Source: Sulfuracidifex tepidarius | GTDB lineage: Archaea; Thermoproteota; Thermoprotei_A; Sulfolobales; Sulfolobaceae | Direction: 5' to 3' | Assembly (NCBI RefSeq): GCF_008326425.1 | Contig: NZ_AP018929.1 | Location: 2,246,875 to 2,310,874 of the forward strand | DNA length: 64,000 bases | In this document: positions 1,091 through 24,262 of the stretch, one piece after another | Position numbering within the stretch: position 1 is the stretch's first letter | Layout of the letters: each line of letters starts with the position of its first letter | Notes under the pieces: generated by a model | Told to the model about the DNA's origin: nothing | Database searches by the model: none | Seen by the model: only the letters and a program-made list of their open reading frames with translations | Translations under genes and position numbers: made by a program

Positions 1091-2563
1091 TCACTTCAGC
1101 TTCAGGACCTTCATGAGAACTAGATACATCATCATCCCCATCAACAAGCCTGATAGAGGGCCGACCTGAGCAAGGTCTTCGAGGAAACCTACTTTCAGCC
1201 CTAAATCAGGAGAGTACAAGATCAATGAAAGTACAGCGAACGTTATCAATGAAGCTGGATTTATCCCCTTCCAGTACCAGTACTTAGAGTTCTTTATGAA
1301 GATCGCGTTCGTATCAAGGGAAAACTTCTTCATGACCACGTAATCGGCTACGTTTATCCCCACTATTATTCCAAGCGCAGTACCGTAAGCTAAGAGCCAG
1401 TTGTCCACGAAGTTGTAAGCAGACCCAAGGAAGCTCCAAGCACCCAGTGCCAACCCGATCACTGTAGCTATTATCACCCCTTTGAACCAGGAAATCTTCT
1501 TAGGGAATATATTGGAAATGTCGTACCCCGGAGGAAGGAGGTTCGCCAAGGTGTTCACACCGAAGGTCTCAAGCAGAAGTGAGAAGAGAACGAACATCAA
1601 AAGCGGGGCTGGGAGGGTCAGCAAAGAAAGCAGAACTGGGTCTATGATTGTAGAGTGGACTAAGGAATAGGCAAAAAGAGTCCCCATAACGGACATGAAC
1701 CCGAAAACTGCATAAGTGATAGGAAGGACAAGTTGTCCATACATCTGCGCCTTCTGTGACTTGGAAAACCTCACTAGGTCAGGCATGCTTATCGCCATTG
1801 TGAGCCAATTCGCAGTGTTGCCTGCCAGGAAGGAGAGTGCAGCTATCAAGGAGAACGGTCCGAACGCTGGCGGAAGAGCACCTACGTTCCATCCAGCCTT
1901 GAATCCCTCGTACAGGAAAATGGACGTAAGGGAAGCTATTGAGAGAGGACCTACAATGAGACTGAACTTCCTCAACGTTTCTTGCCCTTTCTTTATAGGA
2001 GAGAAGTATAGGAACACGAGCTCAGCTACCACCACGGATACGAAAACTCCCCAGAAAAGTGAAGGGTCTGCCAGGGAAATCGTGTACGAGTTAGCCGAGC
2101 CGGACTTCACGAGCGGCATCACAACCTTGTCCAAGTTCCCCGTGGCATACAGATAGATCCCAGCCACGATTTCGGTGAAGATGAAGAGCTGAATTCCCCA
2201 CCATCCCGTTCCTATTATGGACCTCACTATGGAGGGTAGCTGGGCTCCCCAAATTCCCCACCTCGTCCTGGTGATCTGGGGTTCTGCAAGTCCGTATTTT
2301 GCTCCGGCGTGGGACTGTATTATCATGGGGACTAGGGTGATCACGTTTCCAAGGAACTCCATTAACAGTGAAACCCCCCAAGGTAGACCTAAAAAGATTC
2401 CGAACCATGGGTATTCCCACGTTAGGACTCCTACGCTCATCACTGTCCATATCATGCCGAAGTCTAACGCGCCCCATTTCTTGAGCGACGTGTTAACTGG
2501 AAGGATGTCCTCGTTTGTAATCGTGGAATTAAATGAACTTTCGACCTTTTCGTTATTTTCCAT
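1091..2563 (-). CDS. NCS1-family nucleobase/hydantoin:cation symporter
   Basis: A 490-residue integral membrane protein with about 12 hydrophobic segments. The N-terminal part has the NCS1 pattern: a short polar tail, then KKWGALDFGMIWTVMSVGVL and, further on, GTGWWGIQLFIFTEIVAG. NCS1 carriers import cytosine, uracil, allantoin, purines or hydantoins with H+ or Na+. Length and layout agree with the PucI/Mhp1/CodB group. The gene lies at the edge of a region rich in hydantoinase-, amidohydrolase- and amidase-like genes, so a cyclic amide or nucleobase is the likely cargo. The exact substrate is inference. An AT-rich run (TTTTTTAA type) upstream on the minus strand near 2585-2595 can serve as promoter. 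Confidence 0.9.
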   Translation of the reverse strand: MENNEKVESSFNSTITNEDILPVNTSLKKWGALDFGMIWTVMSVGVLTWEYPWFGIFLGLPWGVSLLMEFLGNVITLVPMIIQSHAGAKYGLAEPQITRTRWGIWGAQLPSIVRSIIGTGWWGIQLFIFTEIVAGIYLYATGNLDKVVMPLVKSGSANSYTISLADPSLFWGVFVSVVVAELVFLYFSPIKKGQETLRKFSLIVGPLSIASLTSIFLYEGFKAGWNVGALPPAFGPFSLIAALSFLAGNTANWLTMAISMPDLVRFSKSQKAQMYGQLVLPITYAVFGFMSVMGTLFAYSLVHSTIIDPVLLSLLTLPAPLLMFVLFSLLLETFGVNTLANLLPPGYDISNIFPKKISWFKGVIIATVIGLALGAWSFLGSAYNFVDNWLLAYGTALGIIVGINVADYVVMKKFSLDTNAIFIKNSKYWYWKGINPASLITFAVLSLILYSPDLGLKVGFLEDLAQVGPLSGLLMGMMMYLVLMKVLKLK

Positions 2564-2814
2564 GGACTTAGATTAAAGGACTAGTTAAAAAAGATTTAAA
2601 TTTCTTCTTTAAATAAGTTTCATTTCATACATGAGGTCTTCATGTATATTTTACCAATATTTAACAAAACTTCTCTGAAGACATGAAAACTTTATCTCAT
2701 GTTAAGAAAGAAATATGGAAAAAATGAATTAAAAATATATAGGATTAGATCCTCATTTAAGAACAGTAGATAGGAAAAAAGAAAAAAAATTCACGTAATG
2801 TGGTGAGAAACCTG

Positions 2815-3279
2815 TCAGATGGAACTTATTACCTTCTCTATCTCACTATAAGGAGGCTCCACCGTGGGGTCGTCTGAGACCCACTTGTATCTTATTACAC
2901 CTTCCTTGTCGACCACAAAGACGGCCCTCTTGGCGAGGACGTATCCTGGAAGTGACGGGAATTCCCAGGACACTCCGTACTTCTTCACGACCTCCCTGCT
3001 GTAATCACTGAGTATCTCGAAATTGAGCTTGTTATGCTCCTTGAACGCCTTATTACTGAAAGGTGGATCAACGCTTATACCGAGAACCACAGCGTTTAAG
3101 TCGTTGAACTTGCTCATGCTGTCCCTGAAGGTACACATTTCCTTAGTGCATACAGATGTGAACGCGGCTGGGAAAAACGAGAGAACTACAGTCTTTCCTT
3201 TCATATCACTTAACTTAACTGGCTTCAGCTCCGTGTTGTACAACACGAAGTCCGGGGCTTTTTCGTATTCTGATACCAT
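2815..3279 (-). CDS. peroxiredoxin (AhpC/TSA-Bcp type)
   Basis: A 154-residue thioredoxin-fold peroxidase. Residues 37-49 read PAAFTSVCTKEMC, the peroxidatic-cysteine motif (P...T..C) with Cys44 as the attacking residue and Cys49 as a possible resolving partner, as in Bcp-like enzymes. A conserved Arg is present near residue 117 (AKRAVFVVDKEG). The family reduces H2O2 and organic hydroperoxides in the cytosol, with electrons from thioredoxin- or glutaredoxin-like proteins. The gene is single, with AT-rich spacers on both sides. Length is normal. Confidence 0.93.
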   Translation of the reverse strand: MVSEYEKAPDFVLYNTELKPVKLSDMKGKTVVLSFFPAAFTSVCTKEMCTFRDSMSKFNDLNAVVLGISVDPPFSNKAFKEHNKLNFEILSDYSREVVKKYGVSWEFPSLPGYVLAKRAVFVVDKEGVIRYKWVSDDPTVEPPYSEIEKVISSI

Positions 3280-3562
3280 ACTATTCTATAGGTACCATCA
3301 TTTTTAGATTTAACTTGAAAATTTTAAATAAATAATATCTTAATTTTAAAAATAGTAAAATAAATTAAGAATTATGTAGGCTTGATGACCATTAATGTCC
3401 CACCCGTCATAACATATACCTTCCTAAACGCAGAAAACAGGAAGATTACATCAATCCTTTTTTCCTCTCTCATTTTTATATTTACTAGTAATGATTAATA
3501 ATTTTTGTAGATAAGGACTTTTTTAAAAATTCCGATAAAATGTTCCCTCACCTTACTTTCAT

Positions 3563-6310: not shown

Positions 6311-7630
6311 TTAGGAAAACTCTTGATCTGAGATCGCGAGTGCGTCATCTATGGCGTTAAGTCCCTTGTCCAGTTCCTCCTTCGTGATTATGAGTGGAGG
6401 AGAGATCACCAGCCAAGACGCTCCTCCGAAGATGTATACTCCTCTTTCCATAAGATAGGACGTGATCTTGTCTATCACAGTTAGTCTTCCGCCGTACTTG
6501 TCCTCATAAGTGCCCACTGGAGTCATATTATCGTCCTTCACCAGTTCTATAGCCCAGAATAGACCTACTCCTCTCACATCGCCAACGCTCTTGTGTTTCT
6601 CCTTTATCTCGTTGAGCCTCCTTTCGACATAAGACGACATGTCCCTTACGTGAGAAAGCAGATCCATTCTCCTGTACTCTTGTATCACGGCTGGAATAGA
6701 TGACAACACCACTGGATGAGCCTCAAATGTATGACCGTGGGCGAACACGTGGTCCTCAAAGAAGTCAGATACTTTTTTGCTGACCCCTGTTATGCCGACA
6801 GGGAGGTAAGACGCTGACGCGCCCTTAGCTGTAGTCATTAAGTCCGGTCTTACACCCCACAAGTCCACGGCAAACCACTCCCCTGTCCTACCCCACCCTG
6901 TCATCACCTCGTCTGCTATCATAATGACGTCATTCTCCTCCGTTATCTTCCTCAACAACGGAAGGTATTCCTTGGGTGGTACCACAACCCCGTTAGTTCC
7001 CGTTATAGGCTCCACAATAAGTGACGCGACGTTACCTTCCTGCTTTATCACATAGTCCACGTAGTTTGCACAGGAAATCCCGCATTCAGGGTACTTTAAC
7101 TTCAACGGGCACCTGAAACAGTAAGGTTCGGGTACTCTCACTACTCCAGGCATCGAGTTAGGTTCTGTGAACCATCTTCTATAGTCCCCGGTCAAGGACA
7201 TCGAAGCCAAGGTGGACCCGTGATATGACCTGTACCTAGAGATTACCTTATACTTGGGGGACTTTACCATCCTGGTTATCTTGACCGCGGCCTCGTTGGC
7301 TTCAGTCCCTGAAGTGGAGAAGAAGAACTTCGTTATTCCCTTAGGAACCACCTCTAACAAGGAACGGATGGCGTCAGCCCTCGCCTTTGTGGAGAAAGCC
7401 GGAGAAACATATTGAAGATCCGACATACCTTGTTCAATCGACTTTATGACCCTTTCGTTTCCGTGACCTAAGTTGACGTTCACTAACTGTGAAGACATAT
7501 CCAAGTAACTTCTTCCCTTGTCATCGTAAAGAAATACTCCCTTGGCTGAGACCAAGTTTATCGGGTTCCATCCTCTCTGTTTCCTCCACGTCCCAAAGGA
7601 ATGATTCTTGACTAGCTCCGCGTCATCCAT
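6311..7630 (-). CDS. class III (omega) aminotransferase
   Basis: A 439-residue PLP enzyme of fold type I. Visible motifs are STSGTEANEAAVKITR (cofactor phosphate loop), IADEVMTGWGRTG (PLP-ring Asp) and MTTAKGASASYLPVG, whose Lys forms the Schiff base. A Cys-rich stretch, CFRCPLKLKYPECGISCANY, resembles that of taurine/beta-alanine:pyruvate-type members. The family moves amino groups from beta-alanine, GABA, beta-aminoisobutyrate or other omega-amines to pyruvate or 2-oxoglutarate. Next to dihydropyrimidinase- and nitrilase-like genes, a beta-amino acid is a reasonable donor, but this is inference. A TATA-like box at 7651-7662 fits a leaderless ATG 7630. Confidence 0.92.
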   Translation of the reverse strand: MDDAELVKNHSFGTWRKQRGWNPINLVSAKGVFLYDDKGRSYLDMSSQLVNVNLGHGNERVIKSIEQGMSDLQYVSPAFSTKARADAIRSLLEVVPKGITKFFFSTSGTEANEAAVKITRMVKSPKYKVISRYRSYHGSTLASMSLTGDYRRWFTEPNSMPGVVRVPEPYCFRCPLKLKYPECGISCANYVDYVIKQEGNVASLIVEPITGTNGVVVPPKEYLPLLRKITEENDVIMIADEVMTGWGRTGEWFAVDLWGVRPDLMTTAKGASASYLPVGITGVSKKVSDFFEDHVFAHGHTFEAHPVVLSSIPAVIQEYRRMDLLSHVRDMSSYVERRLNEIKEKHKSVGDVRGVGLFWAIELVKDDNMTPVGTYEDKYGGRLTVIDKITSYLMERGVYIFGGASWLVISPPLIITKEELDKGLNAIDDALAISDQEFS

Positions 7631-8898: not shown

Positions 8899-10068
8899 GG
8901 GCGATTCAGGTCTGCATTGCAAATTCGCTTTGTTTCTTTAAGACAAGATAGAAATAATTAGTCGTACATGGAGGGAAAATAACAGGGTAATACTAATAGG
9001 GGATGGCAGGACATTATACCATGCGTGAAGTACAACCAGGACGTGGAGAGCACGACTCCACGATCCTGCTCGTCCCCATCAGGGAAGGACTCGTTATTAA
9101 AGAAGACGTCAAGGAAATAGAGAGGAGAGCGGTTGAGGATACGGAGATGGCGAGCCCCAAGTACGGGGGGAAGGAGACGAGGAGGGATTACGCCACCTAC
9201 AGGTTTCTGAAAGGTTTCACTGTGAAGAAGAGAGGGAGGAGGATAGAGCACGAGGTGAGCTTCCTCACCGTGAAGTTACCCGTCATCTGCAGGGGTGGTA
9301 GGAAGGTGAGGACGAACACGGAGAGGAGGCCTGATAGGGAGAGCTAACAAGTGGAGACGGTGCTTTCCTCACTCTATTCCTTCCTGGGAGGGAAGCTCAA
9401 CGTCAAGCTCATCTCAACGAGGCTGGAGGTACAGGGGAACTTCAAGTACGTATTTGACGGGAGGGAGTCCTCCTCGTGACTCTAGGCATGTCACCAGAAG
9501 GGAGGAGGGCAGTCCTCGACGTACTCCTGGCTATGGAGGAGGACTCAAGGAGTTACTGGACCCTCCTCGCTAGACTATGGCGCAAGTTTAACCCCGTCCT
9601 GGTCGTAGCTGACGGGGTGAAAGCCCTAGATAAGGCAATCTCCCTGTCTGGGATTCCGCCCTCAGGCAACAGTGCTTGGTGCACTTGAAGCGTTCCATGA
9701 CCAGAGAGGAGAGGGAGGAGCTGAACCGCCTCCTCTACGCTGAGGAGGTGAGCACGTACAGGGTAAGTCCGACGTCCTCAATTACCTCGTCTCTCCCAAG
9801 GACGGATGTGACCCAAGCCTAACAACCTCGAGTCGTTCAACTCCTTGAGAGAAGACGTTTCGGTAAGTTCCACTCCCCCTCACGCGTCCTGCAGATCGCC
9901 CTCAATATCGCCAGGGAGTACAACCCGTCGAACTGTTATCTTATTCCAGTAATAATATTACATCACACCTTACTCTCCTCTCCACCTTGACCTAAGGTCA
10001 TTTTTCTTCATAGAATTAGACTAAATCTAAGAGAATATTACAATCTGCAATGGAGACCTGAATCGCCC
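8899..10068 (+). mobile_element. decayed insertion sequence, 1170 bp, with terminal inverted repeats
   Basis: The left end GGGCGATTCAGGTCTGCATTGC (8899-8920) and the right end at 10047-10068 are inverted copies with one mismatch in 22 bases. Directly outside both ends is the same five-base word AGTTA (8894-8898 and 10069-10073), a clean target-site duplication. Inside is a GC-rich transposase gene broken by several frameshifts. Perfect ends with a dead gene suggest a fairly recent insertion whose transposase decayed, or movement in trans. The family is not assigned; the transposase layout recalls DDE transposases of the Mutator/IS256 kind, but those usually duplicate 8-9 bp. Confidence 0.85.
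9003..9930 (+). pseudogene. frameshifted DDE-type transposase remnant
   Basis: The reading continues through at least four frame segments: 9003-9347 (MAGHYTMREVQPGRG...), 9351-9477 (VETVLSSLYSFLGGKLNVKL...), 9476-9680 (VTLGMSPEGRRAVLDVLLAM..., then VVADGVKALDKAISL) and a last part with CLVHLKRSMTREEREEL and LQIALNIAREYN. 'Glycine-rich sheet, then aDG..al..ai, then QxCxxHxxR' is the arrangement of the middle and end of Mutator-like transposases. No intact frame exists, so the protein cannot be made. GC content is well above the flanks, as expected for a mobile gene. Confidence 0.7.
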
Positions 10069-12003: not shown

Positions 12004-12026
12004 AGTCTGTATTGAGGATGAATCCT

Positions 12027-12037
12027 CTTATAAAAAT
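12027..12037 (-). promoter_or_regulatory. TATA-like promoter of the APC permease gene
   Basis: The minus strand reads ATTTTTATAAG, centred about 26-28 bases before ATG 12003. It shows that the permease has its own promoter and is not simply the tail of the upstream operon. Confidence 0.45.
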
Positions 12038-12157
12038 TTCAGAGAAAATTTAAAAACTTTTTATTTTCTTAACCTTAATACATGAATATAGTTCACAACT
12101 ACCGAGAGAATTTTAACCGTTTTACCCTAAAGGTTTTTCGCTTTCCTACATGGCAAA

Positions 12158-13228: not shown

Positions 13229-13241
13229 CTCGCTTCTCCCC

Positions 13242-14516: not shown

Positions 14517-15445
14517 CTCTCCCTCGCCTCAAAAGCGTCCATGATTTCTCCTCCTTTGTTCCCGAAGACCGAGACGGGTATGAAACCCGATACAGTCCAG
14601 TTGGGGACGTCTACCACTTGGCTTACCTTCAAGTCCATGACTGTACTCAAGAGCATGTATGCCTCAACTGGTTCCATGAAATTTGAGAGAAAGGAGATTG
14701 CCTCCTTCACTACCATCAGGGAAGCGTTCCACAGATCGTTAGAAAACCCCATGAAGGTTATGTGGTCTCCGTCGTATTCCGCCTCCCTGGGCTTGCTCAC
14801 GAAGACAGGAGACTTTAGGTTCCTGCTCTTCACGACTTCTACCCTCAACTTTACCTTAGTTGGTGCCTCCACTGCACTTCCGCATACTTCTCCATCGCCT
14901 TGAGCTAGGTGGGTGTCTCCCACGGAGAGGAGAGCTCCTTTCCTGAAGACCGGGAAGTAAATTCTAGACGACACAGTCATCTGTTTCACGTCCATGTTGC
15001 CACCGTTCTCCCTGGGCGGAATCGTGCTCCAAACTCCGTTAAGCCTCATTCCGGTCCCAATTACTCCAGGGAAAGGAAACTCCTTGACCTTCACGTAAAT
15101 GTCACCGAACTTAGCTGAGACGTATCCCTCATCTGAAGACCAAATCTTTAAGGCTTGACTGTTGACGCCTTCGGGGACGTCGTTTTCTTTAGATAGGAAA
15201 CCGAATCCCGGTATTACGGCAGTCCAGCCCCACCCCTCCCCGTGGATATCGAGTATTTCTACCTTGAGCGCGTCCCCCGGCTCTGCTCCCTCCACAAATA
15301 TCGGACCAGTGAGCGGATGTATCCTGGAGAAGTCCAAGTTCGTAACGTCATTCAAGTCTGAGTTCCTCCTTATTTGTCCGTCGGAGGCCTCTTTCACTTC
15401 TAGCTCTACGGTGTCTCCGTCCTTCACGTAAATGGCCGGTTTCAA
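14513..15445 (-). CDS. acetamidase/formamidase-family hydrolase
   Basis: A beta-rich amidase of about 310 residues with YVKDGDTVELEVKEASDGQI, FVEGAEPGDALKVEILDI, SVGDTHLAQGDGEVCGSAVE (the conserved G-D-x-H-x-x-x-G-x-G-E metal/active site) and a C-terminal half typical of the family. It releases ammonia from formamide or small amides. The first ordinary start is TTG 15445. The conserved frame continues upstream without a stop, through HSTHSRWNSSLKP, to an ATA codon at 15484-15482 nine bases after a perfect GAGGTGA. The true start may therefore be 15484 with a non-standard codon. Second gene of the nitrilase operon. Confidence 0.88.
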   Translation of the reverse strand: MKPAIYVKDGDTVELEVKEASDGQIRRNSDLNDVTNLDFSRIHPLTGPIFVEGAEPGDALKVEILDIHGEGWGWTAVIPGFGFLSKENDVPEGVNSQALKIWSSDEGYVSAKFGDIYVKVKEFPFPGVIGTGMRLNGVWSTIPPRENGGNMDVKQMTVSSRIYFPVFRKGALLSVGDTHLAQGDGEVCGSAVEAPTKVKLRVEVVKSRNLKSPVFVSKPREAEYDGDHITFMGFSNDLWNASLMVVKEAISFLSNFMEPVEAYMLLSTVMDLKVSQVVDVPNWTVSGFIPVSVFGNKGGEIMDAFEARER

Positions 15446-15493
15446 CGACGAGTTCCATCTGCTGTGAGTTGAATGAACGCTTATCGTTCTCCC

Positions 15494-15500
15494 TCACCTC
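15494..15500 (-). promoter_or_regulatory. Shine-Dalgarno site GAGGTGA before the formamidase gene
   Basis: A perfect complement of the crenarchaeal 16S 3' end. It overlaps the nitrilase stop codon, and nine bases later comes ATA instead of ATG/GTG/TTG. The site argues for initiation near 15484 rather than at TTG 15445, 48 bases away. Confidence 0.7.
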
Positions 15501-16293
15501 ACAATCCGTAACTTGGAAGTCTCTTCTTCAAGAAAGGTCTCTTGAGCCTGGCGTCAATTATTTCGTCCTCGTTCACATCTGCGTAAACTATGCTCTCTCC
15601 TTCACCTTTGGAAATAATTTCACCCATCGGTGAGATGACCATGGAGTCCCCGAAATATTCCTGCGGTTGGTAAGGATATTCCTTTCCTACCCTGTTTATT
15701 CCCGCTATGTAAACCGTGTTGAAGATAGCGTGAGCTTTCAGTTCTATCTCCCATATCTCCTTGAAGTACGCTACGGAGGGGACGAAGACCACCTGAGCTC
15801 CTTTGACCACTTCAGCCCTCACGGTCTCAGGGAAGTGCCTATCATGACATATGACCACACCTACTTTCGTCCCTCCCAGATCGAAGACAGGAAAACCGAG
15901 GTCTCCTACTTTAAAGTAATAATATTCATTGAACAAGTTGTCTTGGGGTAGGTGAGTCTTCCTGTACTTCCCCACTATCTTCCCCTCGTCGTTTATCACG
16001 AAAGCTGTGTTGTAGAACATCCCGTTCTCTCTTTCAAATATTGGTACAATGAGATTCACGTTTCTCTCCTTTGCCTTCTCCCTGAACTTAGTAATAGTCG
16101 GACCATTCTCGTCCTCAGCCATTGAGAAGTATTTCACGTTCTGCTCGAACGCGAAGTACACTGTGTTTGAAAGCTCGTCCAGCGCAATTATCCTCGCTCC
16201 CACGTCTGAAGCCTTATCAACCATTTCAATTTGCCTTTTCACGTTGTCCTCCTTATCCCAGGACATGTGGGTTTGAATCAGGGCTATTTTCAT
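15499..16293 (-). CDS. carbon-nitrogen hydrolase (nitrilase superfamily)
   Basis: A 264-residue cytosolic amidase with the Glu-Lys-Cys triad: Glu40 in LDELSNTVYF, Lys in GKYRKTHLP (about residue 113) and Cys in VVICHDRHFPET (about residue 146). The C-x-D-R-H-F-P-E sequence and the length fit N-carbamoyl-amino acid amidohydrolases or beta-ureidopropionase-like branches better than true nitrilases. That would fit downstream of a hydantoinase, cleaving N-carbamoyl products to amino acid, CO2 and NH3; this substrate is inferred. It is the first gene of a four-gene operon (nitrilase, formamidase, GS-like, amidohydrolase) starting from the shared divergent promoter region. Confidence 0.9.
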   Translation of the reverse strand: MKIALIQTHMSWDKEDNVKRQIEMVDKASDVGARIIALDELSNTVYFAFEQNVKYFSMAEDENGPTITKFREKAKERNVNLIVPIFERENGMFYNTAFVINDEGKIVGKYRKTHLPQDNLFNEYYYFKVGDLGFPVFDLGGTKVGVVICHDRHFPETVRAEVVKGAQVVFVPSVAYFKEIWEIELKAHAIFNTVYIAGINRVGKEYPYQPQEYFGDSMVISPMGEIISKGEGESIVYADVNEDEIIDARLKRPFLKKRLPSYGL

Positions 16294-16383
16294 TCTGTTC
16301 GTGTTTATGTAAACGAATAACTTATTAGCTTTTCTTGATCTTACATGAAACGTTTTTAAGATAGTTGCGATGTGTATTTTATA
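16294..16383. promoter_or_regulatory. compact divergent promoter of the nitrilase and molybdenum-hydroxylase operons
   Basis: Ninety bases separate the two start codons. On the plus strand GTTTTTAAGA (16352-16361) is centred about 26 bases before the ATG at 16384 and supports that start. On the minus strand an AT-rich CTAATAAGTTATT element near 16318-16330 serves the nitrilase operon. The close spacing suggests that both operons are controlled together. Confidence 0.5.
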
Positions 16384-18312
16384 ATGCGATGGAATTTAAC
16401 CTACGTGGACGATATTTCGGGAGAATATAAGTTTGTTGGGTTCAAGCGTTCGACCTATAAACACGCCGAGTTCTCGGTCTCGGGGGATTGTTATACTGAA
16501 GAGATACTAGATAATTACAGAGTAAAATTTGTATTTGGGGAAGAGGAAATGAAGATACCAAAAGTCACGTTACTAGCTAAGAAGAAGGCTCTCTATGAGG
16601 GGCATCCTCTATGCATGGTGATTTCGGGGGATAGGTACTCGGTGGAAGACAGGCTGGAGGAAGTCGATGTGGACTACCGGGAGGTGAACGGGCCTCTCTT
16701 CCCTGAGATACCAGATAACGTGATCTACTCTAAATCTCACGGAAGGAAAGGGGAAGCGGAAACGTCCATGTCGCTACACCTGAGGGCAGGAAGGAGTTCC
16801 CCCGCGCCTATGGAGCCCAGAGTGATAGCTGTGAGGTTTACCGGGGACTCGATCTTGGTTCACGCCTCAACGCAAGCGCCTACTGTAGCTAGAATATTGA
16901 TAGCTGAGATGTTAGACGTTCCAATGCACAGGGTGAAGGTAGATGTGCCCAACGTAGGTGGTGGTTTCGGGGCTAAGCAGGATCTGTCATATGAGGAACT
17001 CTCGGTCGTGGCACTCGCATACGAACTAGGAGAGAACCTCAAGTGGGTTGAAACTAGGTCGGAACACGTTCAGAACTCCCAAGCCAGGGACCAGGGGCAT
17101 TTGGTCGAGGTAGGGTTCACCAAGGAAGGTAAATTGGAGTTCCTACACGACGACATAACTTACGATACTGGGGCATTCCCTTTAGCTTGGAGCGGAATCT
17201 CCCCGCTCTTCGTGACTCTGAGCACTATGACTTCAGCGTATTCCTTCGACTTCTCCTATAACGTTAAGGCAGTCCTGAGCAACAAACCTCCACAAGGAGC
17301 TTACAGGGGTTTCGGAAGGCCTGAGGCCGTGTTCGTGATGGAAAGAGTCATGGACGAGATCTCCAGAAGGACTGGGATTGACCAGATAGAGGTAAGGAGG
17401 AAGAACTTGAGGAATCTGGATGACGTAGGTGACGTGAAGTCTGTCCTCGAGGAGATAGAAAGGAAGTACAAGGAATTCAAGGAAATTTACGGTAAAGGCG
17501 TCGGCCTCGCGTTTTACGTGCAGTACGCTGGACCCAACTCCAAACTCATGATAGAGAAGGAAAAGTCCAGGATACCCGGATATGACTGCGTGAGGGCATA
17601 TCTGGACCTAGACGGGTGGGTCGTAATAAAGATTTCAGCTACGAACCAAGGACAGGGAATGGACAGAGCTATCAAGAACTTAGTCTCAAAGGAGCTAGGA
17701 TATGAAAAAGTCAGGGTGCTGTTGGGAGACAACGAGGTGAAGGGGTACGGAGTTTGGGCTAGTAGGACCATGCTCACGATGGGAAACGCTGCAGTCATAG
17801 CTGCAAGGCAACTCAAGGAAAAGGTCTCTACTCTTGGGGACTGGGAGGAAGTATCTAAGATGATGCTGACACAACCTTGGAAGGTGATGGACGTGTCGGC
17901 TGACGCTTGCTATGAAACTGAGGACTTCGTTGGTACTGTCTCGGGTCAAATAAGCGTCGTCAGGGGTGACTGCACAGGGGTCAAAGTTGAAAGACATTTC
18001 ATAGTAGCTGACGTCGGAGTGTCAGGAGATGAGGAGATAGTCAAGGGACAACTCATGGGAGGTGCCCTTCAAGGGATAGGAGGGGTCCTCTATGAGAACG
18101 CCAACGACGGTGTCGAGTTCGCAGTACCTACATCCATGGAGGCGCCTACGTTCGAGGTGAAACTCTTCCATACCCCGTCCAGAACACCTACAGGGGTCAG
18201 AGGAGTCGGAGAGAACGGCCCAACAGGGGCTTACGCTTCGCTGTGTAACGCAATCAGGGACCTGGGGCTGGAGTGTAACTCTTTCCCATTCCCTAGAGGT
18301 GAAAGGAGTTGA
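16384..18312 (+). CDS. molybdopterin-binding large subunit of a xanthine dehydrogenase/CO dehydrogenase-type hydroxylase
   Basis: About 642 residues, somewhat shorter than the usual 700-780. Visible motifs are HASTQAPTVARILIAEML, VPNVGGGFGAKQD (Mo-pterin binding), PPQGAYRGFGRPEAVF and, near the end, TGVRGVGENGPTGAYAS, whose Glu is the catalytic base in this family. It hydroxylates N-heterocycles or aldehydes using water. The N-terminal domain is reduced. No 2Fe-2S small subunit or CoxM-type FAD subunit is adjacent. The frame also opens at GTG 16372, but the TATA position favours ATG 16384. It is coupled to the hydantoinase downstream. The substrate is probably a heterocycle, by context. Confidence 0.9.
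   Translation: MRWNLTYVDDISGEYKFVGFKRSTYKHAEFSVSGDCYTEEILDNYRVKFVFGEEEMKIPKVTLLAKKKALYEGHPLCMVISGDRYSVEDRLEEVDVDYREVNGPLFPEIPDNVIYSKSHGRKGEAETSMSLHLRAGRSSPAPMEPRVIAVRFTGDSILVHASTQAPTVARILIAEMLDVPMHRVKVDVPNVGGGFGAKQDLSYEELSVVALAYELGENLKWVETRSEHVQNSQARDQGHLVEVGFTKEGKLEFLHDDITYDTGAFPLAWSGISPLFVTLSTMTSAYSFDFSYNVKAVLSNKPPQGAYRGFGRPEAVFVMERVMDEISRRTGIDQIEVRRKNLRNLDDVGDVKSVLEEIERKYKEFKEIYGKGVGLAFYVQYAGPNSKLMIEKEKSRIPGYDCVRAYLDLDGWVVIKISATNQGQGMDRAIKNLVSKELGYEKVRVLLGDNEVKGYGVWASRTMLTMGNAAVIAARQLKEKVSTLGDWEEVSKMMLTQPWKVMDVSADACYETEDFVGTVSGQISVVRGDCTGVKVERHFIVADVGVSGDEEIVKGQLMGGALQGIGGVLYENANDGVEFAVPTSMEAPTFEVKLFHTPSRTPTGVRGVGENGPTGAYASLCNAIRDLGLECNSFPFPRGERS
18296..18302 (+). promoter_or_regulatory. 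Shine-Dalgarno site GAGGTGA before the hydantoinase gene
   Basis: A perfect GAGGTGA inside the end of the upstream gene, followed by AAAGGAG. Six bases to TTG 18309 and twelve to ATG 18315; both starts are in frame. Confidence 0.6.
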
Positions 18313-18314
18313 TA

Positions 18315-19613
18315 ATGAAGAACGCTAGGCTTATCACGGAGGGAGGAATAGTTGATGCTGACGTCAAGATAGACGAAGGTAAGATAACGAAGATTTCCCC
18401 TGAGATCCCTTCAGTGGGAGATGACGTAACTGACTTGACCGGAATGTACTTGATGCCATCGGCCATAGACGGGCATACACACTTCGGATCCAGGTTCTTG
18501 GGAGCGAAAGATCCGATCCCCACGGCTGACGATTTCTCTTCAGGGAGTGAAGTATGCTTGGCAGGAGGGATAACTTCCATAGTGAACTTCTTCGAGTCGT
18601 CAGCGAACCCATTAGCCTCGCTCAAGGAGGAAATAAGCAAGGCCGAGGAGTCCATGGTAGACTTTTCCTTTCATTTCATCATAAAGAGAAAGGAGGAAAT
18701 ACCCTACCTGAAGGAGATCTTCAAGTTGGGAGTGAAGAGCGTGAAGGTGTTCATGGCATACGACTCGATCAGGCTTAAAGACTTTCATATCATGGAGGTA
18801 ATGGAGGAAGTAAGGAAATTGGGGGGTGTAGTGGCTGTCCACGCCGAAAACGGTGACATGATAAATTTCCTCCAATCCAGGCAACAGGGAGACGAACCAA
18901 TAAACCACGTCAGAACTAGGCCTACAGAGAGCGAAGAGGAAGCTGTAAATAGGTTCTCGTCAATGGCATTCGTCACGGGAGTCAAGGGATATGCTGTACA
19001 CGTCTCGTCTCCTGCTTCACTCAACGTGATAAGGTATTGGAACAAGAGAGGGGCCAAGGTTTACGCTGAAACTTGTCCTCACTACTTGTTATTCAATGCT
19101 GACGCGTATAAGAGAAAAGACGGAAAGAGGTTCATAATGAGCCCTCCGCTGAGGAGCGAAGAGGAGAGAAAAGAAATGGTATTGAGGTTGAACGAGTTTT
19201 ACACTGTAGGAAGCGACTATTCAGGTTTCCTGTCTAAATACAAGGATGAGCCTTCGTCATATAGGGACGTTCCGAACGGGGTGGCCTCCACTGAGTTCAT
19301 GCTCGTCACTGTCGCATCACTCATGTTCCAAGGTTATCTTGATCCAGGGCTATTGGTCTCCCTGACCTCGGCTAACGCTATAAGGCTTTACGGTATATTG
19401 AACAAGGGGTTAGAGGAAGGGAAGGACGCAGACTTAGTCGTCTTGAAGAGAGAAGACTGGAAAGTGAAGGACTGGCACGGAAAGATGGACCACTCCATTT
19501 ATGAGGGAGTTCAATTCAGTGCAAAAGTGGAGAGAACTTACCTTAGGGGAGAACTCGTCTATGAAGATGGAGATATTAAGGGAGGTAAGGGAAGGATGCT
19601 TCGACGAATTTGA
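18315..19613 (+). CDS. dihydropyrimidinase/hydantoinase/allantoinase-family amidohydrolase
   Basis: A 432-residue cyclic amidohydrolase. Metal ligands appear in order: D-G-H-T-H (SAIDGHTHFGS), the Lys that becomes carboxylated in GVKSVKVFMAYDS, VAVHAENGD, AVHVSSPAS and the late Asp in VGSDYSGF, where most members have G-T-D-H-x-P. The enzyme opens cyclic amides (dihydropyrimidines, hydantoin, allantoin) to carbamoyl acids. The late motif lacks the usual His. The gene follows the Mo-hydroxylase directly with a perfect ribosome site, so the two act together, plausibly oxidation then ring opening. Confidence 0.9.
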   Translation: MKNARLITEGGIVDADVKIDEGKITKISPEIPSVGDDVTDLTGMYLMPSAIDGHTHFGSRFLGAKDPIPTADDFSSGSEVCLAGGITSIVNFFESSANPLASLKEEISKAEESMVDFSFHFIIKRKEEIPYLKEIFKLGVKSVKVFMAYDSIRLKDFHIMEVMEEVRKLGGVVAVHAENGDMINFLQSRQQGDEPINHVRTRPTESEEEAVNRFSSMAFVTGVKGYAVHVSSPASLNVIRYWNKRGAKVYAETCPHYLLFNADAYKRKDGKRFIMSPPLRSEEERKEMVLRLNEFYTVGSDYSGFLSKYKDEPSSYRDVPNGVASTEFMLVTVASLMFQGYLDPGLLVSLTSANAIRLYGILNKGLEEGKDADLVVLKREDWKVKDWHGKMDHSIYEGVQFSAKVERTYLRGELVYEDGDIKGGKGRMLRRI

Positions 19614-20021
19614 GTTTCATCTCGATTTACCTATACTGTCATTTTCTCTTTTAATATTTAAAAACACATGAAGAAATAATGGAGAATTTGCTGAGCTTTT
19701 TAAGTATGTCTTTGTCTGTGTTTTAGTTTCCATGATGTCTATACCATTTAACGCTAAGCAGAAGACATATTCGTCTAATGATGGTATACATTACATTTTG
19801 TTAAAAACAATATTAAAAATAAGCTATTCTGTTGAATTTAAGTTAATATGATAAGTCTATTTTCTAGACTTATCTTCGCATTTTATTCAAATATTCTGAT
19901 ATATTCTGAGAAACAACTCGTGTCACCACACTAAAACATATTATCGTGTAGCGTAAAGGTGATAATTAGTTTTTATTTTTTAAAGGAAATCTCATAGGTC
20001 TTTAACATTTTTTAGGGATAT
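19614..20021. other. AT-rich spacer with a perfect hairpin
   Basis: No coding frame. It contains the inverted repeat at 19850-19874 (listed separately) and T-rich runs just after the hydantoinase stop that may end its transcript. Confidence 0.4.
19850..19874. repeat. perfect 10-bp inverted repeat with 5-base loop
   Basis: GATAAGTCTA, then TTTTC, then TAGACTTATC. It lies in the middle of the spacer, about 240 bases after the hydantoinase and 170 before the next promoter. It could be an operator for a dimeric regulator or an RNA stem. Confidence 0.5.
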
Positions 20022-20032
20022 CCTTTTATATG
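20022..20032 (+). promoter_or_regulatory. TATA box that sets the start of the first cytosine-deaminase-like gene
   Basis: CCTTTTATATG, followed 28-30 bases later by ATG 20060. The earlier in-frame ATG at 20030 lies inside the box itself, so it cannot be the start. Confidence 0.55.
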
Positions 20033-20059
20033 ATTTCTACAAAGTGGCTAGTGGTTGAA

Positions 20060-21226
20060 ATGGTTCTAGTAATAAAGGGACTAAGGGGGATAAAGGAGCT
20101 GAGGGTAGACGGAAGAGGAACCCTCAACGCCGAAGGAAGGATGGCTCTGCCGGCCTTCTACGATATGCACTTCCATCCCGAGAACGCGTTCACGTTGAGA
20201 CGCACAGGGGAAAACACTTCGTCCACACTCCAGGAGGCTGTGGCTAAATGGAGCAAGTTAAGGGACTTGCTATCTGTAGAGGAAATTAAGGATAGAATGA
20301 AGAAGGCTCTTCTCCTGGAGTTATATCACGGAGTCACCCACGTTAGAATTCACGTCGACACTTGCTCCAAAGACCTGAAATCCGTGAAGGCTTCTGTGAT
20401 ACTTAAGGAGGAAATGAAAGACCTTATGGACATACAGACTGTCTCCTTTCCTGAACAGAGCGTGTTCAAGTGCAGCAACGACTTCACTTATGCGTCGCAG
20501 CTAACAGACATTGTAGGAGGAAAGCCGGACGCTGAGGACGACATAGAAACTTCCATAAAGCATCTAAGTTACGTAACTATGATAGCTAAGAAGTTGGGCA
20601 AGAACATGGACGTCCACATAGACCAGGACGCTAGGAGAACCAGGTTTGCAGAGTACCTGCTGTCCTTCGCCGACATGCACCTAGCGTTGTCTCACATGTC
20701 TTCCTTGCATTACGAGGACGACGACTACGTGAGGAAGATAACCCAGATGATCAGAAACAAAAGGGCTTCGGTCATAAGCTCTCCTCTAACGGGTGTGTAT
20801 CTAGCGACTGAGAAGGGATATCCTAAAGGAAGGGGAATAACCAGGATAAGGGAATTGATGAAGGAAGAGATAAACGTCTGCCTAGGTAATGACGATACAC
20901 AGAACGTATTCTATCCTTTCGGATCAGGTGATATATTGCTATCTCTTTTCATGGCAATTAACATGGAACAGTCATTCAACGCTGATGAATGGATACCATT
21001 AGTCACCTATAACTCGGAGAAGGAGTTCTCCACGACCTCAAACCCAGGGAAGGACTTCGTGATATTGGACGCGTCGTCAATGAGAGAACAGATGTCCACC
21101 TTGGCCCCCAGGTTCATGGTCATAAGGAACGGGAGGATAGTTGCTAAGACCAACAGAGAAGCAAGGTTACTAATAGATGGAACTAGCCTTGACCCAGTTA
21201 TGCTGATGAGATCTCTAACAGGATAA
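20060..21226 (+). CDS. cytosine deaminase-like amidohydrolase, paralogue A
   Basis: A 388-residue TIM-barrel amidohydrolase of the CodA/TrzN-like class. Motifs are AFYDMHFHPENAF (H-x-H), MDVHIDQDARRTRF, LALSHMSSLHYEDDDY and CLGNDDTQNVFYPFG. Against E. coli CodA as I recall it (V-H-C-D-E and G-H-D-D), the catalytic Glu position is Gln and the His before the Asp pair is Asn. Deamination of cytosine is therefore doubtful; an amide hydrolase role is as likely. It has its own promoter. A paralogue lies at 23060-24262. Confidence 0.82.
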   Translation: MVLVIKGLRGIKELRVDGRGTLNAEGRMALPAFYDMHFHPENAFTLRRTGENTSSTLQEAVAKWSKLRDLLSVEEIKDRMKKALLLELYHGVTHVRIHVDTCSKDLKSVKASVILKEEMKDLMDIQTVSFPEQSVFKCSNDFTYASQLTDIVGGKPDAEDDIETSIKHLSYVTMIAKKLGKNMDVHIDQDARRTRFAEYLLSFADMHLALSHMSSLHYEDDDYVRKITQMIRNKRASVISSPLTGVYLATEKGYPKGRGITRIRELMKEEINVCLGNDDTQNVFYPFGSGDILLSLFMAINMEQSFNADEWIPLVTYNSEKEFSTTSNPGKDFVILDASSMREQMSTLAPRFMVIRNGRIVAKTNREARLLIDGTSLDPVMLMRSLTG

Positions 21227-21369
21227 GACGTTATGAGGAGTAGGAAAGAAGCATTATCAGGTTCATGTAAATTTATTTCTAATTTGTATAAGTATACACG
21301 CATATATTTGCTCTCTTATTATTAAACTCTCTTTGCTCTTTGTTTTAAGCTCCGAGACCTATTAATCAT

Positions 21370-21753
21370 ATGTCAATTTTAAAGTATTTGGCAATCTCAA
21401 TAGACATCATCCTGTTGTTACAGTTCATGGACGGATGGTACGTAGACTTCTCAAACGACTTTCCTTCAGTTTTTTCCCTCGCTGGAGTCATAGGTTACAC
21501 CGTTCTGGTTGTCCATTTCTTCATGGGACTACTTGCAGGTGCCATGGGAGTTATAGCTGTTATACTAGCTGTCAAGTTAGAACCGAAGGTCATAAAAACC
21601 TCAATAGCGTCCCTTGTTCTCCTATCCATTGCTGGAATAGGAGGAATTATGTTCATGATTACTAACTTTCAAAACAACGTCTATTCTGACGTGATGTTGC
21701 TGGGTTCAATTTTATCACTTTTCAGCTATTTCTATCTCTCCTTGGAAGCTTAA
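21370..21753 (+). CDS. small membrane protein, four transmembrane segments
   Basis: A 127-residue protein that is almost all hydrophobic, with four segments at about residues 3-20, 35-67, 77-97 and 105-125, separated by short polar loops (DGWYVDFSNDF, KLEPKVIKT, TNFQNNVYSD). There is no signal peptide and no known motif. TGTTTTAAGC upstream is centred about 26 bases before ATG 21370, so it is probably transcribed alone. Position between the amidohydrolase and the FAD oxidoreductase hints at a link to that pathway, but nothing in the sequence shows it. Confidence 0.65.
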   Translation: MSILKYLAISIDIILLLQFMDGWYVDFSNDFPSVFSLAGVIGYTVLVVHFFMGLLAGAMGVIAVILAVKLEPKVIKTSIASLVLLSIAGIGGIMFMITNFQNNVYSDVMLLGSILSLFSYFYLSLEA

Positions 21754-21934
21754 CCAGAGTCTCAACATGAGTCATTTCACCATGTAATCATTCTTTCTTT
21801 ATGAAAATTGGTCAATTAATTTCAATGCATGAAATAGTTTGTTGAAAGGAGTCCTTCTTCTTCTCCCTTAAAAATGAAAAGTTTTAATGAGAAATCCTGA
21901 AAAGAATATAATCTATTTTAAGTTAAGACATGGC

Positions 21935-23047
21935 ATGAATAGGATAGTTGAATTACTAAAAGGCTTCGACGTTAAGGACGATTACGAGACCCTTCAGAAG
22001 TACTCTGCAGATTACGGAATTATGTCGAAATCCATTGAGAGCAAGAGAAAGCTACCTTCTGCGGTAATATTCCTGAGAAGAAGGGATGAGGTCGAACGTC
22101 TAATGGAGGTAGTAAGGGAATATCACGTTCCAATAGTTGAAAGAGGAAAGGGAACCAATACCCTGGGGGGAGCTATCCCACTAAAGGAGGACAGTGTAGT
22201 TGTCGACCTCTCCGGAATGAAAGGGTACTGCACAGAGGAAGACAGCATCACGTCCCTCCCTGGGACGGAGTTTGACGAAGTTGGTATAGAGAGATTTCCC
22301 GTCTTACCAACGTCGTTCTATATGGCTACTCTCGGAGGATTCGTATCAGGAGGATCCCTTGGGTTAGGGTCGCTCAAGAACGGAGCGATATGGGACAACG
22401 TGATGGAGGTTGAAGTCTATACTCCTTCAGGTAGAAAGGAGTTGCATGGGGATGAGGTAAAGGCAGTTGTACAGGCAGGAGGAACTAACGGAATAGTAAC
22501 GAGAGTGAAGCTGAGATCCGTTAAGAGGGGAAAGATAAAGGTAAGGAGGACTCACTTTAGCTCTCTTGATAAGGCAGTGGATTACGCAGTAGATCAGGAC
22601 GGCGCTGAGTTCGTGAGCATAAGGAACAAAAAGATGATGTCTGCGATGGGATATAGTTCAGGAGGCTGGACTGTCATAGTGGGTGAAGAGGAAGGGGGAG
22701 GCGACGACGTAGCCTTCAGAGACCTCATAACAAATTTCGCCGGAGCGTATTACACTGTTGTGAACAAGATGAAGGTATCTTACACCTCTTTGGACTTGCC
22801 CTTATATAGACTATACGAATTGGACGACGAATGCATGATAGACGCTGAACTGTCGAAGAGCCAGGGGATCATGTTCTCCCACACATATTTCCTAGACTGT
22901 ACACCTAAACTGGAAGGTTTCAAGTTCGATCTCCACTCTGTCCTGATAAACGATAGGGCTGAAGAAAACAGACTGTCGAAGATGATAGAGTTCAAGAGAA
23001 GGTATGACCCAGAGGACTTGATGAACCCCGGCAAACTACTGTTCTGA
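21935..23047 (+). CDS. FAD-binding oxidoreductase (PCMH/GlcD type)
   Basis: About 370 residues of the vanillyl-alcohol-oxidase/glycolate-oxidase fold. The FAD pyrophosphate loop is IVERGKGTNTLGGAIP; PTSFYMATLGGFVSGGSLGL follows, and the C-terminus ends with YDPEDLMNPGKLLF, the family signature (D-P-x-x-x-x-N-P-G-K). The family oxidises hydroxy acids, alcohols or related donors. It is shorter than most GlcD proteins (about 450) because the substrate-cap domain is reduced. The frame opens at 21887, but MNRIVELLKGFDVKDDYETL matches the usual N-terminus. It ends 12 bases before the next gene, so they form an operon. It may supply flavin electron transfer in this degradation region; this is inference. 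Confidence 0.85.
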   Translation: MNRIVELLKGFDVKDDYETLQKYSADYGIMSKSIESKRKLPSAVIFLRRRDEVERLMEVVREYHVPIVERGKGTNTLGGAIPLKEDSVVVDLSGMKGYCTEEDSITSLPGTEFDEVGIERFPVLPTSFYMATLGGFVSGGSLGLGSLKNGAIWDNVMEVEVYTPSGRKELHGDEVKAVVQAGGTNGIVTRVKLRSVKRGKIKVRRTHFSSLDKAVDYAVDQDGAEFVSIRNKKMMSAMGYSSGGWTVIVGEEEGGGDDVAFRDLITNFAGAYYTVVNKMKVSYTSLDLPLYRLYELDDECMIDAELSKSQGIMFSHTYFLDCTPKLEGFKFDLHSVLINDRAEENRLSKMIEFKRRYDPEDLMNPGKLLF

Positions 23048-23059
23048 AGGTTTGGCTTG

Positions 23060-24262
23060 ATGATTCTGAACAACCTTAAGACGATTGAAGGAAAAGTAAT
23101 CTCCATAGAGGTTGAAGGTTCGACTCAACACCTGACAAACGAGAAAGGAGATGATATGGAAGGCAGGCTAGTCCTTCCTGCATTCGTGGACTCCCACGCT
23201 CACATGGATAGCAATTTCCTGCTTGACGTATGCAAGGAGGTTGAAAGCGAGAAGTTCACTGAAGCGTTAAGAGCGTTGATAGAGTGCAAGGAGAACTTGT
23301 CCGAAAGTCAAATTTACGATCTAGCCAAGAAGTCCATCAAGGCCTACGCTGAACACGGCTCACTTTTCGTCAGGTCTCACGTCATGATAGATGGGGTGAA
23401 ATGGAAGGAAAGGGCTAGATCACTACTAAAATTAAAAGAGGAGTACAAAGGGGTAATGAACCTTCAATTAATAGGTTTCATACAGAGTTACGATTATTTC
23501 GATGAGGAAATGGTAGACAGAGCAGCGAAAGTGATCGAGATGGGCTTCGACGGAATAGGAGGACAGCCTCATCTCCAACCGTCTGTAGATGACGGAAAAA
23601 GGATGATAAAGTCACTTTTCGACATCGGAACTGAGAAAGGAGTTCATCTAGACTTCCACGCGGATTACGCTGACGAACCTGACTCTAAGTTCAGTGAGGT
23701 AATTGTCTCGGAGTCCCTGAGGAGAAACTACAAAAAGGTAGCGTTGAGCCACCTCACAGCTCTCCACTCATATTACGACGACTATGCCAGGAGACTTATG
23801 AGATGGATGGCAGAGGCAGGTGTTTCAGTTGTGGTTTCTCCCATCACTGTTCTTGAGGAATCTGGAGCACATGAAAATTATCCTAAAAGGAGAGGGATAG
23901 CGAGAGTGAGGGACATGTTGTCCTTTAACGTCAACGTAGTGCTAGGACATGACGACATACAGAACCACCTCAATCCCCTAGGAGTGGGAAACCTCATGCA
24001 CTCTGCTTTCACCTTGGCAATAGGGGAGTACATGTACTTCCCAAAATACGTTAAATCCATCTTTCAAATGATGACATATAACGGTGCTATACTTCAAGGC
24101 ATTTCGAATTACGGAATCGGTGAGGGAAAGCGAGCGAGCTTCGTAGTTCTAGACTCTGGAGACCCCATGGAGGCATTGAGAGAGATATCTCCCGTTAAGA
24201 TGGTAGTAAGCGAAGGTAAAGTGGTTTACGAAAATGAAAACGCAAGACGCTTGTATATCTAA
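23060..24262 (+). CDS. cytosine deaminase-like amidohydrolase, paralogue B
   Basis: A 400-residue relative of paralogue A. It shows [14 protein letters not shown] (H-x-H), [36 protein letters not shown] and [19 protein letters not shown]. The G-H-D-D motif is intact, unlike paralogue A, but the residue aligned with the CodA catalytic Glu (H-C-D-E) appears to be Tyr. A TTG three bases earlier (23057) is also in frame. It follows the FAD oxidoreductase immediately, as second gene of that operon. Substrate probably a cyclic or aromatic amide/amine; it cannot be specified. Confidence 0.82.

What the first reader, a model, noticed from the sequence alone, without database searches (positions are those of the whole stretch)
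1091..24262. A 23-kb island of uptake, oxidation, ring opening and amide hydrolysis genes
Seen: NCS1 permease, class III aminotransferase, APC permease, nitrilase, formamidase, GS-like ligase, amidohydrolase_2, Mo-hydroxylase, hydantoinase, two CodA-like amidohydrolases and a FAD oxidoreductase, in a few operons around a shared divergent promoter. Known: hydantoinase, N-carbamoyl hydrolase (nitrilase family) and omega-transaminase are successive steps of reductive pyrimidine and hydantoin breakdown. Inference: a complete archaeal route for an N-heterocycle, with the Mo enzyme in place of a dihydropyrimidine dehydrogenase. I know of no described Sulfolobales pathway with this set.
Basis: partly seen in the sequence, partly recalled or inferred. 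Interest (0 to 1): 0.72.

Follow-up and report, generated by a model that had tools for sequence, protein, structure and literature searches.

The report
Archaeal nitrogen-ring breakdown gene cluster
Some heat- and acid-loving archaea keep together, in shuffled order, a set of genes that looks built to oxidise and hydrolyse a nitrogen-containing ring compound (perhaps a purine or a pterin), and it is separate from their ordinary pyrimidine-breakdown genes.

Summary
A core (Mo-hydroxylase, divergent hydantoinase, CodA-like enzyme, nitrilase-family carbamoylase, FAD oxidoreductase) is clustered within 7.3-15.3 kb in 8 of 8 Sulfolobaceae genomes with intact copies, in four gene orders, and is decayed in a ninth. 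Best reading: a separate oxidative-hydrolytic route for an N-heterocycle. Closest solved relatives of its FAD and (in other genera) Rieske enzymes act in folate catabolism and on methylxanthine/saxitoxin-type rings; the Mo enzyme ties between quinoline 2-oxidoreductase and an oxidoreductase that aligns as well. Urocanase and uricase gave no match in 31 family genomes. Both island CodA enzymes lack the Glu conserved in cytosine deaminase. Substrate unproven. New variant of a known kind.

The parts
16384..18312 (+). MoL: short (about 640 aa) molybdenum-hydroxylase large subunit, no adjacent FeS or FAD subunit; conserved start at 16384 (ORF opens at 16372)
   Evidence: profile match in 9 of 157 order genomes; genome has 6 large subunits but 2 FAD_binding_5 and 2 Fer2_2
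18309..19613 (+). HYD: divergent hydantoinase/dihydropyrimidinase-like cyclic amidohydrolase, overlaps MoL by 4 nt
   Evidence: (279 bits, cut-off 393)
20030..21226 (+). CodA1: cytosine-deaminase-fold amidohydrolase with Gln in place of the catalytic Glu
21370..21753 (+). small hydrophobic protein, no family; no match listed near the core in the other genomes
21887..23047 (+). FAD4: FAD_binding_4 flavoenzyme, closest solved relative the flavin oxygenase of folate catabolism (6v42)
23057..24262 (+). CodA2: second CodA-fold amidohydrolase, Tyr in place of the catalytic Glu; orthologues in 6 of 8 intact clusters
15499..16293 (-). NIT: nitrilase-superfamily C-N hydrolase, likely N-carbamoyl amino acid hydrolase (CHDRHFPE motif)
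14513..15445 (-). FMD: formamidase/acetamidase family; in 4 of 8 intact clusters
13242..14516 (-). GSl: glutamine-synthetase-like ligase, perhaps a gamma-glutamyl-amine ligase (inferred); accessory
12158..13228 (-). AH2: Amidohydro_2 enzyme next to GSl, pair also in G108; accessory
10408..12003 (-). APC-type permease (c4), relatives in 7 of 8 genomes with intact core (in G011 on another contig)
16294..16383 (.). divergent intergenic region NIT/MoL with a TATA-like element read by eye
   Evidence: divergent order in 5 of 8 genomes
6311..7630 (-). class III aminotransferase; possibly the last step of the separate pyrimidine pathway
1091..2563 (-). NCS1 permease; relatives next to the pyrimidine set in G011 and G078, next to CodA2 in G136
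24628..25032 (-). STK_08120-like protein (CoxG match of 16 bits, below its cut-off) just beyond the given end, also at this place in G066
9000..9822 (+). decayed Mutator-family transposase inside the stated island

Best explanation
The core of the island (within 10408-24262) is a catabolic module, distinct from the reductive pyrimidine pathway, that oxidises and then hydrolyses a nitrogen heterocycle, most likely a fused one such as a purine or pteridine, mainly to obtain nitrogen. Inferred scheme: an APC permease imports the compound. The molybdenum hydroxylase (MoL, borrowing FeS/FAD subunits from elsewhere) puts an oxygen on a ring carbon next to N. The cyclic amidohydrolases (HYD; the second enzyme c8 outside the window; CodA1 and CodA2, probably no longer cytosine deaminases) open the rings. 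NIT removes the resulting carbamoyl group as CO2 and NH3. FAD4, and in other genera a Rieske oxygenase, supply further oxidations. FMD, GSl and AH2 are accessory and handle released formamide or amines. Shown: gene content, clustering, shuffled order, decay in one genome, presence without PreA, active-site residues. Inferred: every substrate and the order of steps.
For: Core genes clustered in 8 of 8 intact genomes in four orders. MoL in 9 of 157 order genomes, the same nine as the HYD orthologues counting the broken G114. CodA1 orthologues in 10 of 31 family genomes and NIT in 10 of 31, nine shared. In G114, HYD, MoL and CodA1 are broken, NIT gave no match in the whole genome and FAD4 no close match in the stretch fetched. 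PreA set separate and not required. MoL overlaps HYD here; a MoL paralogue adjoins the PreA-side hydantoinase in G090. HYD keeps the His/Lys/Asp metal set and the MAY/TAY and SPP motifs. NIT has C-H-D-R-H-F-P-E and the PreA-linked NIT C-Y-D-R-H-F-P-E. Redox partners hint at N-rings: MoL to quinoline 2-oxidoreductase 1t3q (228.3 bits, a tie), FAD4 to folate-catabolism flavin oxygenase 6v42 (88 bits, next 50), Rieske c11 to SxtDIOX/SxtT and methylxanthine demethylases NdmA/NdmB (194-129 bits).
Against: MoL scores equally with the putative oxidoreductase 4zoh (228.0 vs 228.3 bits) and its best NCBIfam hit is glyceraldehyde dehydrogenase (303 bits, cut-off 790), so it might oxidise an aldehyde. 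No dedicated FeS/FAD subunits lie nearby. The Rieske gene was not seen in the 124 kb examined of the window's genome nor in the readable part of the G066 stretch, so the methylxanthine hint does not apply directly here. The FAD4 model is mediocre (mean pLDDT 70), and D-lactate dehydrogenases follow closely. Both CodA enzymes still have cytosine deaminase as their best named family, below cut-off. CodA2 orthologues are missing from the stretches of G078 and G125. Joint decay rests on one genome. The eight genomes are related, not independent. No expression or growth data.
Confidence: 0.62

Rival explanations
1. One reading: a reductive-type pyrimidine (or hydantoin) pathway in which the Mo enzyme stands in for dihydropyrimidine dehydrogenase, ending with the omega-transaminase.
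For: HYD, NIT and the aminotransferase match the three steps after the dehydrogenase by family.
Against: PreA and a dihydropyrimidinase, both over curated cut-offs, plus a second carbamoylase sit together in the same genome. All 7 PreA genomes have CodA1 and NIT orthologues but 2 core genomes lack PreA. Island HYD is below the dihydropyrimidinase cut-off and forms its own clade with an Arg in the loop after HxH in 8 of 8, against 0 of 7 in the clade of the PreA-side enzymes.
Confidence: 0.08
2. Hydrolytic purine route analogous to the clostridial xanthinase pathway: MoL makes xanthine, HYD opens its pyrimidine ring, NIT removes the ureido group, CodA1/CodA2 handle aminoimidazole and imidazolone, FMD takes the one-carbon product.
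For: Number and kind of hydrolases fit the xanthinase steps (outlined in PMC12507026 and PMC3519856, passages read; the aminoimidazole and imidazolone steps and my assignment of genes to steps are recalled or inferred). No uricase match in 31 of 31. Rieske c11 near methylxanthine demethylases.
Against: The report of the xanthinase gene cluster (Tong 2023, seen only as a reference) was not read, so the genes could not be compared. No xanthine-amidohydrolase model was among the 25 of 55 NCBIfam hits shown for HYD. An Arg in HYD's loop suggests an anionic substrate. FMD is in only 4 of 8. Xanthine uptake by the APC permease is untested.
Confidence: 0.2
3. Pterin/folate breakdown: MoL hydroxylates and FAD4 oxygenates a pteridine; CodA1/CodA2 and HYD hydrolyse the products.
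For: FAD4's best sequence and fold match is the folate-catabolism flavin oxygenase 6v42.
Against: Rests on one protein at about 20% identity. D-lactate dehydrogenases follow closely in fold rank.
Confidence: 0.15
4. Histidine or imidazole route through hydantoin-5-propionate (an anionic hydantoin) to carbamoyl-glutamate.
For: Arg in HYD's loop; hydantoin-5-propionate amidohydrolase among HYD's family hits (188 bits, cut-off 650).
Against: No urocanase match in 31 of 31 family genomes, with matches in 5 of 14 control genomes.
Confidence: 0.06
5. Aldehyde oxidation plus unrelated nitrogen-scavenging amidases that share a favourable neighbourhood, not one pathway.
For: MoL's best NCBIfam hit is glyceraldehyde dehydrogenase, far below cut-off; MoL lacks partner subunits nearby.
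Against: Clustering survives in four gene orders, and the genes are decayed together in G114.
Confidence: 0.12

Closest known systems
Reductive pyrimidine pathway (PreA/PydA, dihydropyrimidinase, beta-ureidopropionase, transaminase)
   Same: Hydantoinase and carbamoylase families shared; paralogues of both lie 52-55 kb upstream of the window start
   Different: That pathway is encoded separately with a true PreA; the island has a Mo hydroxylase, CodA-like enzymes and a flavoenzyme instead
Bacterial reductive uric-acid cluster (XdhD, YgfK/UacX, SsnA, HyuA, YgeW/UacY, YgeY, YgeX; PMC12507026, abstract and passages read)
   Same: Mo hydroxylase, Amidohydro_1 enzyme and hydantoinase in one cluster
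   Different: No YgfK-, YgeW- or YgeX-type gene was named among the family hits of the window core (direct search not made); carbamoyl removal would be by a nitrilase
Clostridial xanthinase pathway (PMC3519856, PMC12507026, passages read)
   Same: Expected chemistry: Mo oxidation, hydrolytic ring opening, further hydrolytic steps
Hydantoinase-carbamoylase (Hyu) operons (recalled)
   Same: HYD and NIT together; G119 has a hydantoinase next to a NIT orthologue without MoL or CodA1 orthologues
   Different: Mo, CodA-like and FAD enzymes added; no M20-type carbamoylase among the core's family hits
E. coli cytosine deaminase CodA / AtzC
   Same: Family and metal residues
   Different: Catalytic Glu is Gln in 9 of 9 CodA1 and Tyr/Phe in 6 of 6 CodA2, while 8 of 8 c7 paralogues keep it

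Membership tests
Reductive pyrimidine pathway (island as such) | PreA/PydA dehydrogenase in the set | tested here: not met
   PreA lies 53 kb upstream of the window start with its own hydantoinase and carbamoylase; no PreA match in 2 core genomes
Dihydropyrimidinase equivalog TIGR02033 (HYD) | score over curated cut-off | tested here: not met
   279 bits vs 393; the PreA-side paralogue scores 500
Cyclic amidohydrolase (hydantoinase family) | HxH, carboxylated Lys, His, His, Asp metal set (recalled) | tested here: met
   H56, H58, K146, H178, H231, D303 invariant in 8 of 8; closest solved 1k1d
Cytosine deaminase (CodA1, CodA2) | catalytic Glu after H-x-D (role recalled) | tested here: not met
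   Q in 9 of 9, Y/F in 6 of 6; alignments to 1k6w
Nitrilase-superfamily N-carbamoyl amino acid hydrolase (NIT) | Glu-Lys-Cys triad and Arg after the Cys (recalled) | tested here: met
   invariant E40, K112, C149, R152 in 8 of 8; that the Arg binds a carboxylate is recalled, and the closest solved relative is N-carbamoylputrescine amidohydrolase
Mo hydroxylase, xanthine-oxidase family (MoL) | MoCo-binding domains and catalytic Glu near the C terminus (recalled) | tested here: met
   MoCoBD_1/2, invariant E614 in GVGEN or GIGEN
Mo hydroxylase, complete three-subunit enzyme | FeS and FAD subunits encoded with it | tested here: not met
   Only 2 Fer2_2 and 2 FAD_binding_5 matches in the genome, none adjacent
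Uricase-dependent purine pathway | uricase | tested here: not met
   PF01014 in 0 of 31; other urate oxidases not tested
Xanthinase pathway | homology to characterised xanthine amidohydrolase cluster | not tested
   Tong 2023 was seen only as a reference and no sequence was at hand

The most novel reading that the evidence does not exclude
A new archaeal purine or pteridine catabolic pathway: Mo hydroxylase and flavin/Rieske oxygenases feeding a divergent hydantoinase, two repurposed CodA-fold ring hydrolases and a nitrilase-type carbamoylase. It would be independent of uricase, YgfK and PreA, and found even in lithoautotrophic sulfur oxidisers as a nitrogen source.
Probability: 0.33. Interest if true: 0.68.

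Novelty: new variant of a known kind. Interest (0 to 1): 0.5.

Why it matters
If right, thermoacidophilic archaea, including a relative described as an obligate lithoautotroph, have a ring-degradation route for a nucleobase-like compound that does not follow the purine or pyrimidine pathways compared here. It would give functions to CodA-fold enzymes whose best database name is cytosine deaminase, and to Mo large subunits with no partner nearby. It also shows how a correct gene list can be merged wrongly into one pathway when the true pyrimidine set lies just outside the window.

Tried and rejected
Rejected: Mo enzyme as substitute for dihydropyrimidine dehydrogenase; histidine route (urocanase 0 of 31); uricase route (0 of 31); canonical cytosine deaminases. 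None had the module: one Thermomicrobium locus had a CodA-like gene, one locus a hydantoinase, one a nitrilase and an aminotransferase, another an aminotransferase. The sigma-70-type promoter and terminator scan is not suited to archaea. No tRNA. Family scans of the small hydrophobic protein, the 230-aa ORF and the G136 154-aa ORF gave nothing. Paper search for 'xanthine amidohydrolase' gave none.

Limits: the ORF sets are mine (greedy, at least 90 aa). Neighbourhoods were read over 28-124 kb per genome, so absence of a gene from a 'cluster' means absence from that stretch unless a whole-genome search is cited. Some alignments used part of the copies: CodA1 five of nine, FAD4 six of eight, Rieske five of seven. 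Broken genes in G114 are judged from stops and fragments. Part of the G066 neighbourhood reads N, so absence of genes there means nothing. FAD4, c8, Rieske, APC, AT3 and NCS1 were not searched genome-wide. G163 was seen only through CodA1, NIT and PreA matches.
Full report
What is there. The window is G000:C1:2246875-2310874 of a 2.56-Mb, single-contig genome. Its one same-genus relative in the order sample, G066, has a contig of 2,191,724 bases, the length given in the abstract for Sulfuracidifex metallicus DSM 6482 (PMC10793343, part 1 of the text read; the body and table print 2,194,724). The window is therefore probably Sulfuracidifex, perhaps S. tepidarius (G+C 42.4% in the table of PMC8551704, passages read); this is inference.

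Not one island. Between 1091 and 10400 lie the NCS1 permease, a peroxiredoxin, an MFS transporter, a phosphoesterase, the aminotransferase, an unknown ORF and a decayed transposase (Mutator family, 21.1 bits against cut-off 21). Relatives of the NCS1, phosphoesterase and aminotransferase occur in the other neighbourhoods, but not in a fixed arrangement with the core.

The core is real. HYD orthologues (56-75% identity) occur in 7 other genomes, plus stop-ridden pieces in G114, of 157 order genomes searched (63 of 157 have some hydantoinase-like match at E<=1e-20; the next best is 39%). The MoL profile (E<=1e-100) finds the same nine genomes of 157. Among 31 family genomes, CodA1 orthologues (49% identity or more; others 34% or less) are in 10 and NIT orthologues (E<1e-130) in 10. 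Nine are shared; the exceptions are the broken G114 and G119, which has a NIT next to a hydantoinase but no CodA1 orthologue or MoL match. In 398 phylum genomes the CodA1 profile gives 8 matches at 379 bits or more and then drops to 284. MoL, HYD, CodA1, NIT and FAD4 span 7.3, 7.5, 7.7, 7.7, 11.1, 11.1, 11.1 and 15.3 kb in the 8 intact genomes, in four gene orders. I made no formal test; the genomes are related, so the eight are not independent, but the four orders are hard to explain by shared chromosome structure alone.

Further members. c8, a 409-aa cyclic amidohydrolase (best family hit D-hydantoinase 195 bits, cut-off 393), is in the fetched stretches of 8 of 8 genomes (in G011 on another contig); in the window's genome it ends 6.8 kb left of the window. 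A Rieske oxygenase (Rieske plus VanA_C) is in 6 of 8 intact genomes and in G114. It lies directly before c8, and c8 before FAD4, in five genomes. CodA2 is in 6 of 8, the APC permease in 7 of 8, FMD in 4 of 8.

The pyrimidine pathway is elsewhere. At G000 2191.6-2195.0 kb a dihydropyrimidinase (500 bits, cut-off 393), PreA (376, cut-off 335) and a NIT paralogue lie together, 52-55 kb before the window start; a polysaccharide-deacetylase-family gene and another NCS1 permease lie just beyond, out to 59 kb. PreA is in 7 of 31 family genomes, all with CodA1 and NIT orthologues; G108 and G125 have the core without PreA. In G078 the aminotransferase, an NCS1 (41% to the window's), dihydropyrimidinase, PreA and NIT paralogue lie within 11 kb, about 100 kb from the core. 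Against this assignment, in G011 the aminotransferase is 1.6 kb from CodA1, and in G136 the NCS1 is next to CodA2. So their membership is open.

Active sites. The hydantoinase tree has three clades: PreA-side (including G119), island, c8. The island clade keeps the metal residues but carries an Arg in the loop after HxH (8 of 8; c8 7 of 8; PreA-side 0 of 7). By recollection this is a substrate-gating loop, so an anionic substrate is a guess. CodA1 and CodA2 align to E. coli cytosine deaminase 1k6w, but the Glu of H-C-D-E (E217 by recollection, needed for deamination) is Gln in 9 of 9 and Tyr/Phe in 6 of 6; 8 of 8 c7 paralogues keep Glu. By family score, c7 in this genome is also the closest of the three to cytosine deaminase (308 bits against 197 and 247; cut-off 438). 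NIT carries C-H-D-R-H-F-P-E and the PreA-linked NIT C-Y-D-R-H-F-P-E.

Mo enzyme. MoL is about 640 aa, against 706-809 in its eight top-scoring solved relatives. The genome encodes 6 large subunits but two FAD and two FeS subunits. One FAD/FeS pair stands with a large subunit at 663-666 kb; the other stands alone at 2363-2364 kb, about 100 kb from MoL. Sharing is inferred. MoL ties between quinoline 2-oxidoreductase and 4zoh, a putative oxidoreductase.

Substrate. FAD4's best relative by sequence (88 vs 50 bits for the next) and by predicted fold (mean pLDDT 70) is 6v42, titled a flavin oxygenase of folate catabolism; D-lactate dehydrogenases follow. The Rieske enzyme's best are SxtDIOX/SxtT and NdmA/NdmB. 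These, with the ring and amide hydrolases, favour a purine- or pteridine-like ring. Urocanase and uricase gave no match in 31 of 31 family genomes, with matches in 5 and 2 of 14 control genomes. The specific compound is not identified.

Literature. Searches for Sulfolobales hydantoinase, archaeal purine degradation with allantoin, Sulfolobus pyrimidine catabolism, Sulfolobus dihydropyrimidine dehydrogenase and thermoacidophilic hydantoin listed no paper whose title or abstract start describes such a module. Of the listed papers I read passages of one (PMC4016543), which discusses bacterial clusters; the others were seen as listings only. The library is open-access only. Known analogues are the bacterial reductive uric-acid cluster (PMC12507026, abstract and passages) and the clostridial purine route (PMC3519856, passages).

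Verdict. A real, conserved, patchily distributed catabolic module. Interest 0.5.

Noticed in passing
G000 C1 663470, 723379, 1457608, 2217026, 2263579, 2552246: Six Mo-hydroxylase large subunits but only two FAD (665445, 2363837) and two FeS (664666, 2363049) subunits; one FAD/FeS pair stands alone.
   Followed up: partly
L051:1768-11246 (G000 2208.6-2218.1 kb): HyuA/HyuB-like pair (best NCBIfam caprolactamase, below cut-off), DAO/SoxB-like protein, an unassigned 460-aa ORF and a second Mo large subunit: another apparent N-compound catabolic set.
   Followed up: partly
G114 C1 1410321-1417432: MoL, CodA1 and HYD all broken by stops or splits while the Rieske and APC genes remain: the module apparently decaying as a whole.
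   Followed up: yes
window 9000-9822: Decayed Mutator-family transposase between the aminotransferase and the APC permease.
   Followed up: yes
L060 (G090 2930491-2932296): A MoL paralogue (42%) beside the PreA-side dihydropyrimidinase: a second Mo-hydroxylase/hydantoinase pairing.
   Followed up: partly
G000, G090, G011, G136, G108 neighbourhoods (cluster c3): Many FAD_binding_4 paralogues (3 in G000, 4 in G090, 2 in G011, 2 in G136, 1 in G108) in these catabolic regions.
   Followed up: no
L038:9740-10645: DUF1177 protein next to an APC permease and a FAD4 paralogue in G108 (cluster shared with G090).
   Followed up: no
L050:1307-2194 (G000 2188181-2189068): Polysaccharide-deacetylase-family protein near the PreA set in four genomes and near the G119 hydantoinase; may be a PuuE-type allantoinase (recalled resemblance).
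   Followed up: no
PMC10793343: Genome length differs between abstract (2,191,724) and body/table (2,194,724).
   Followed up: no
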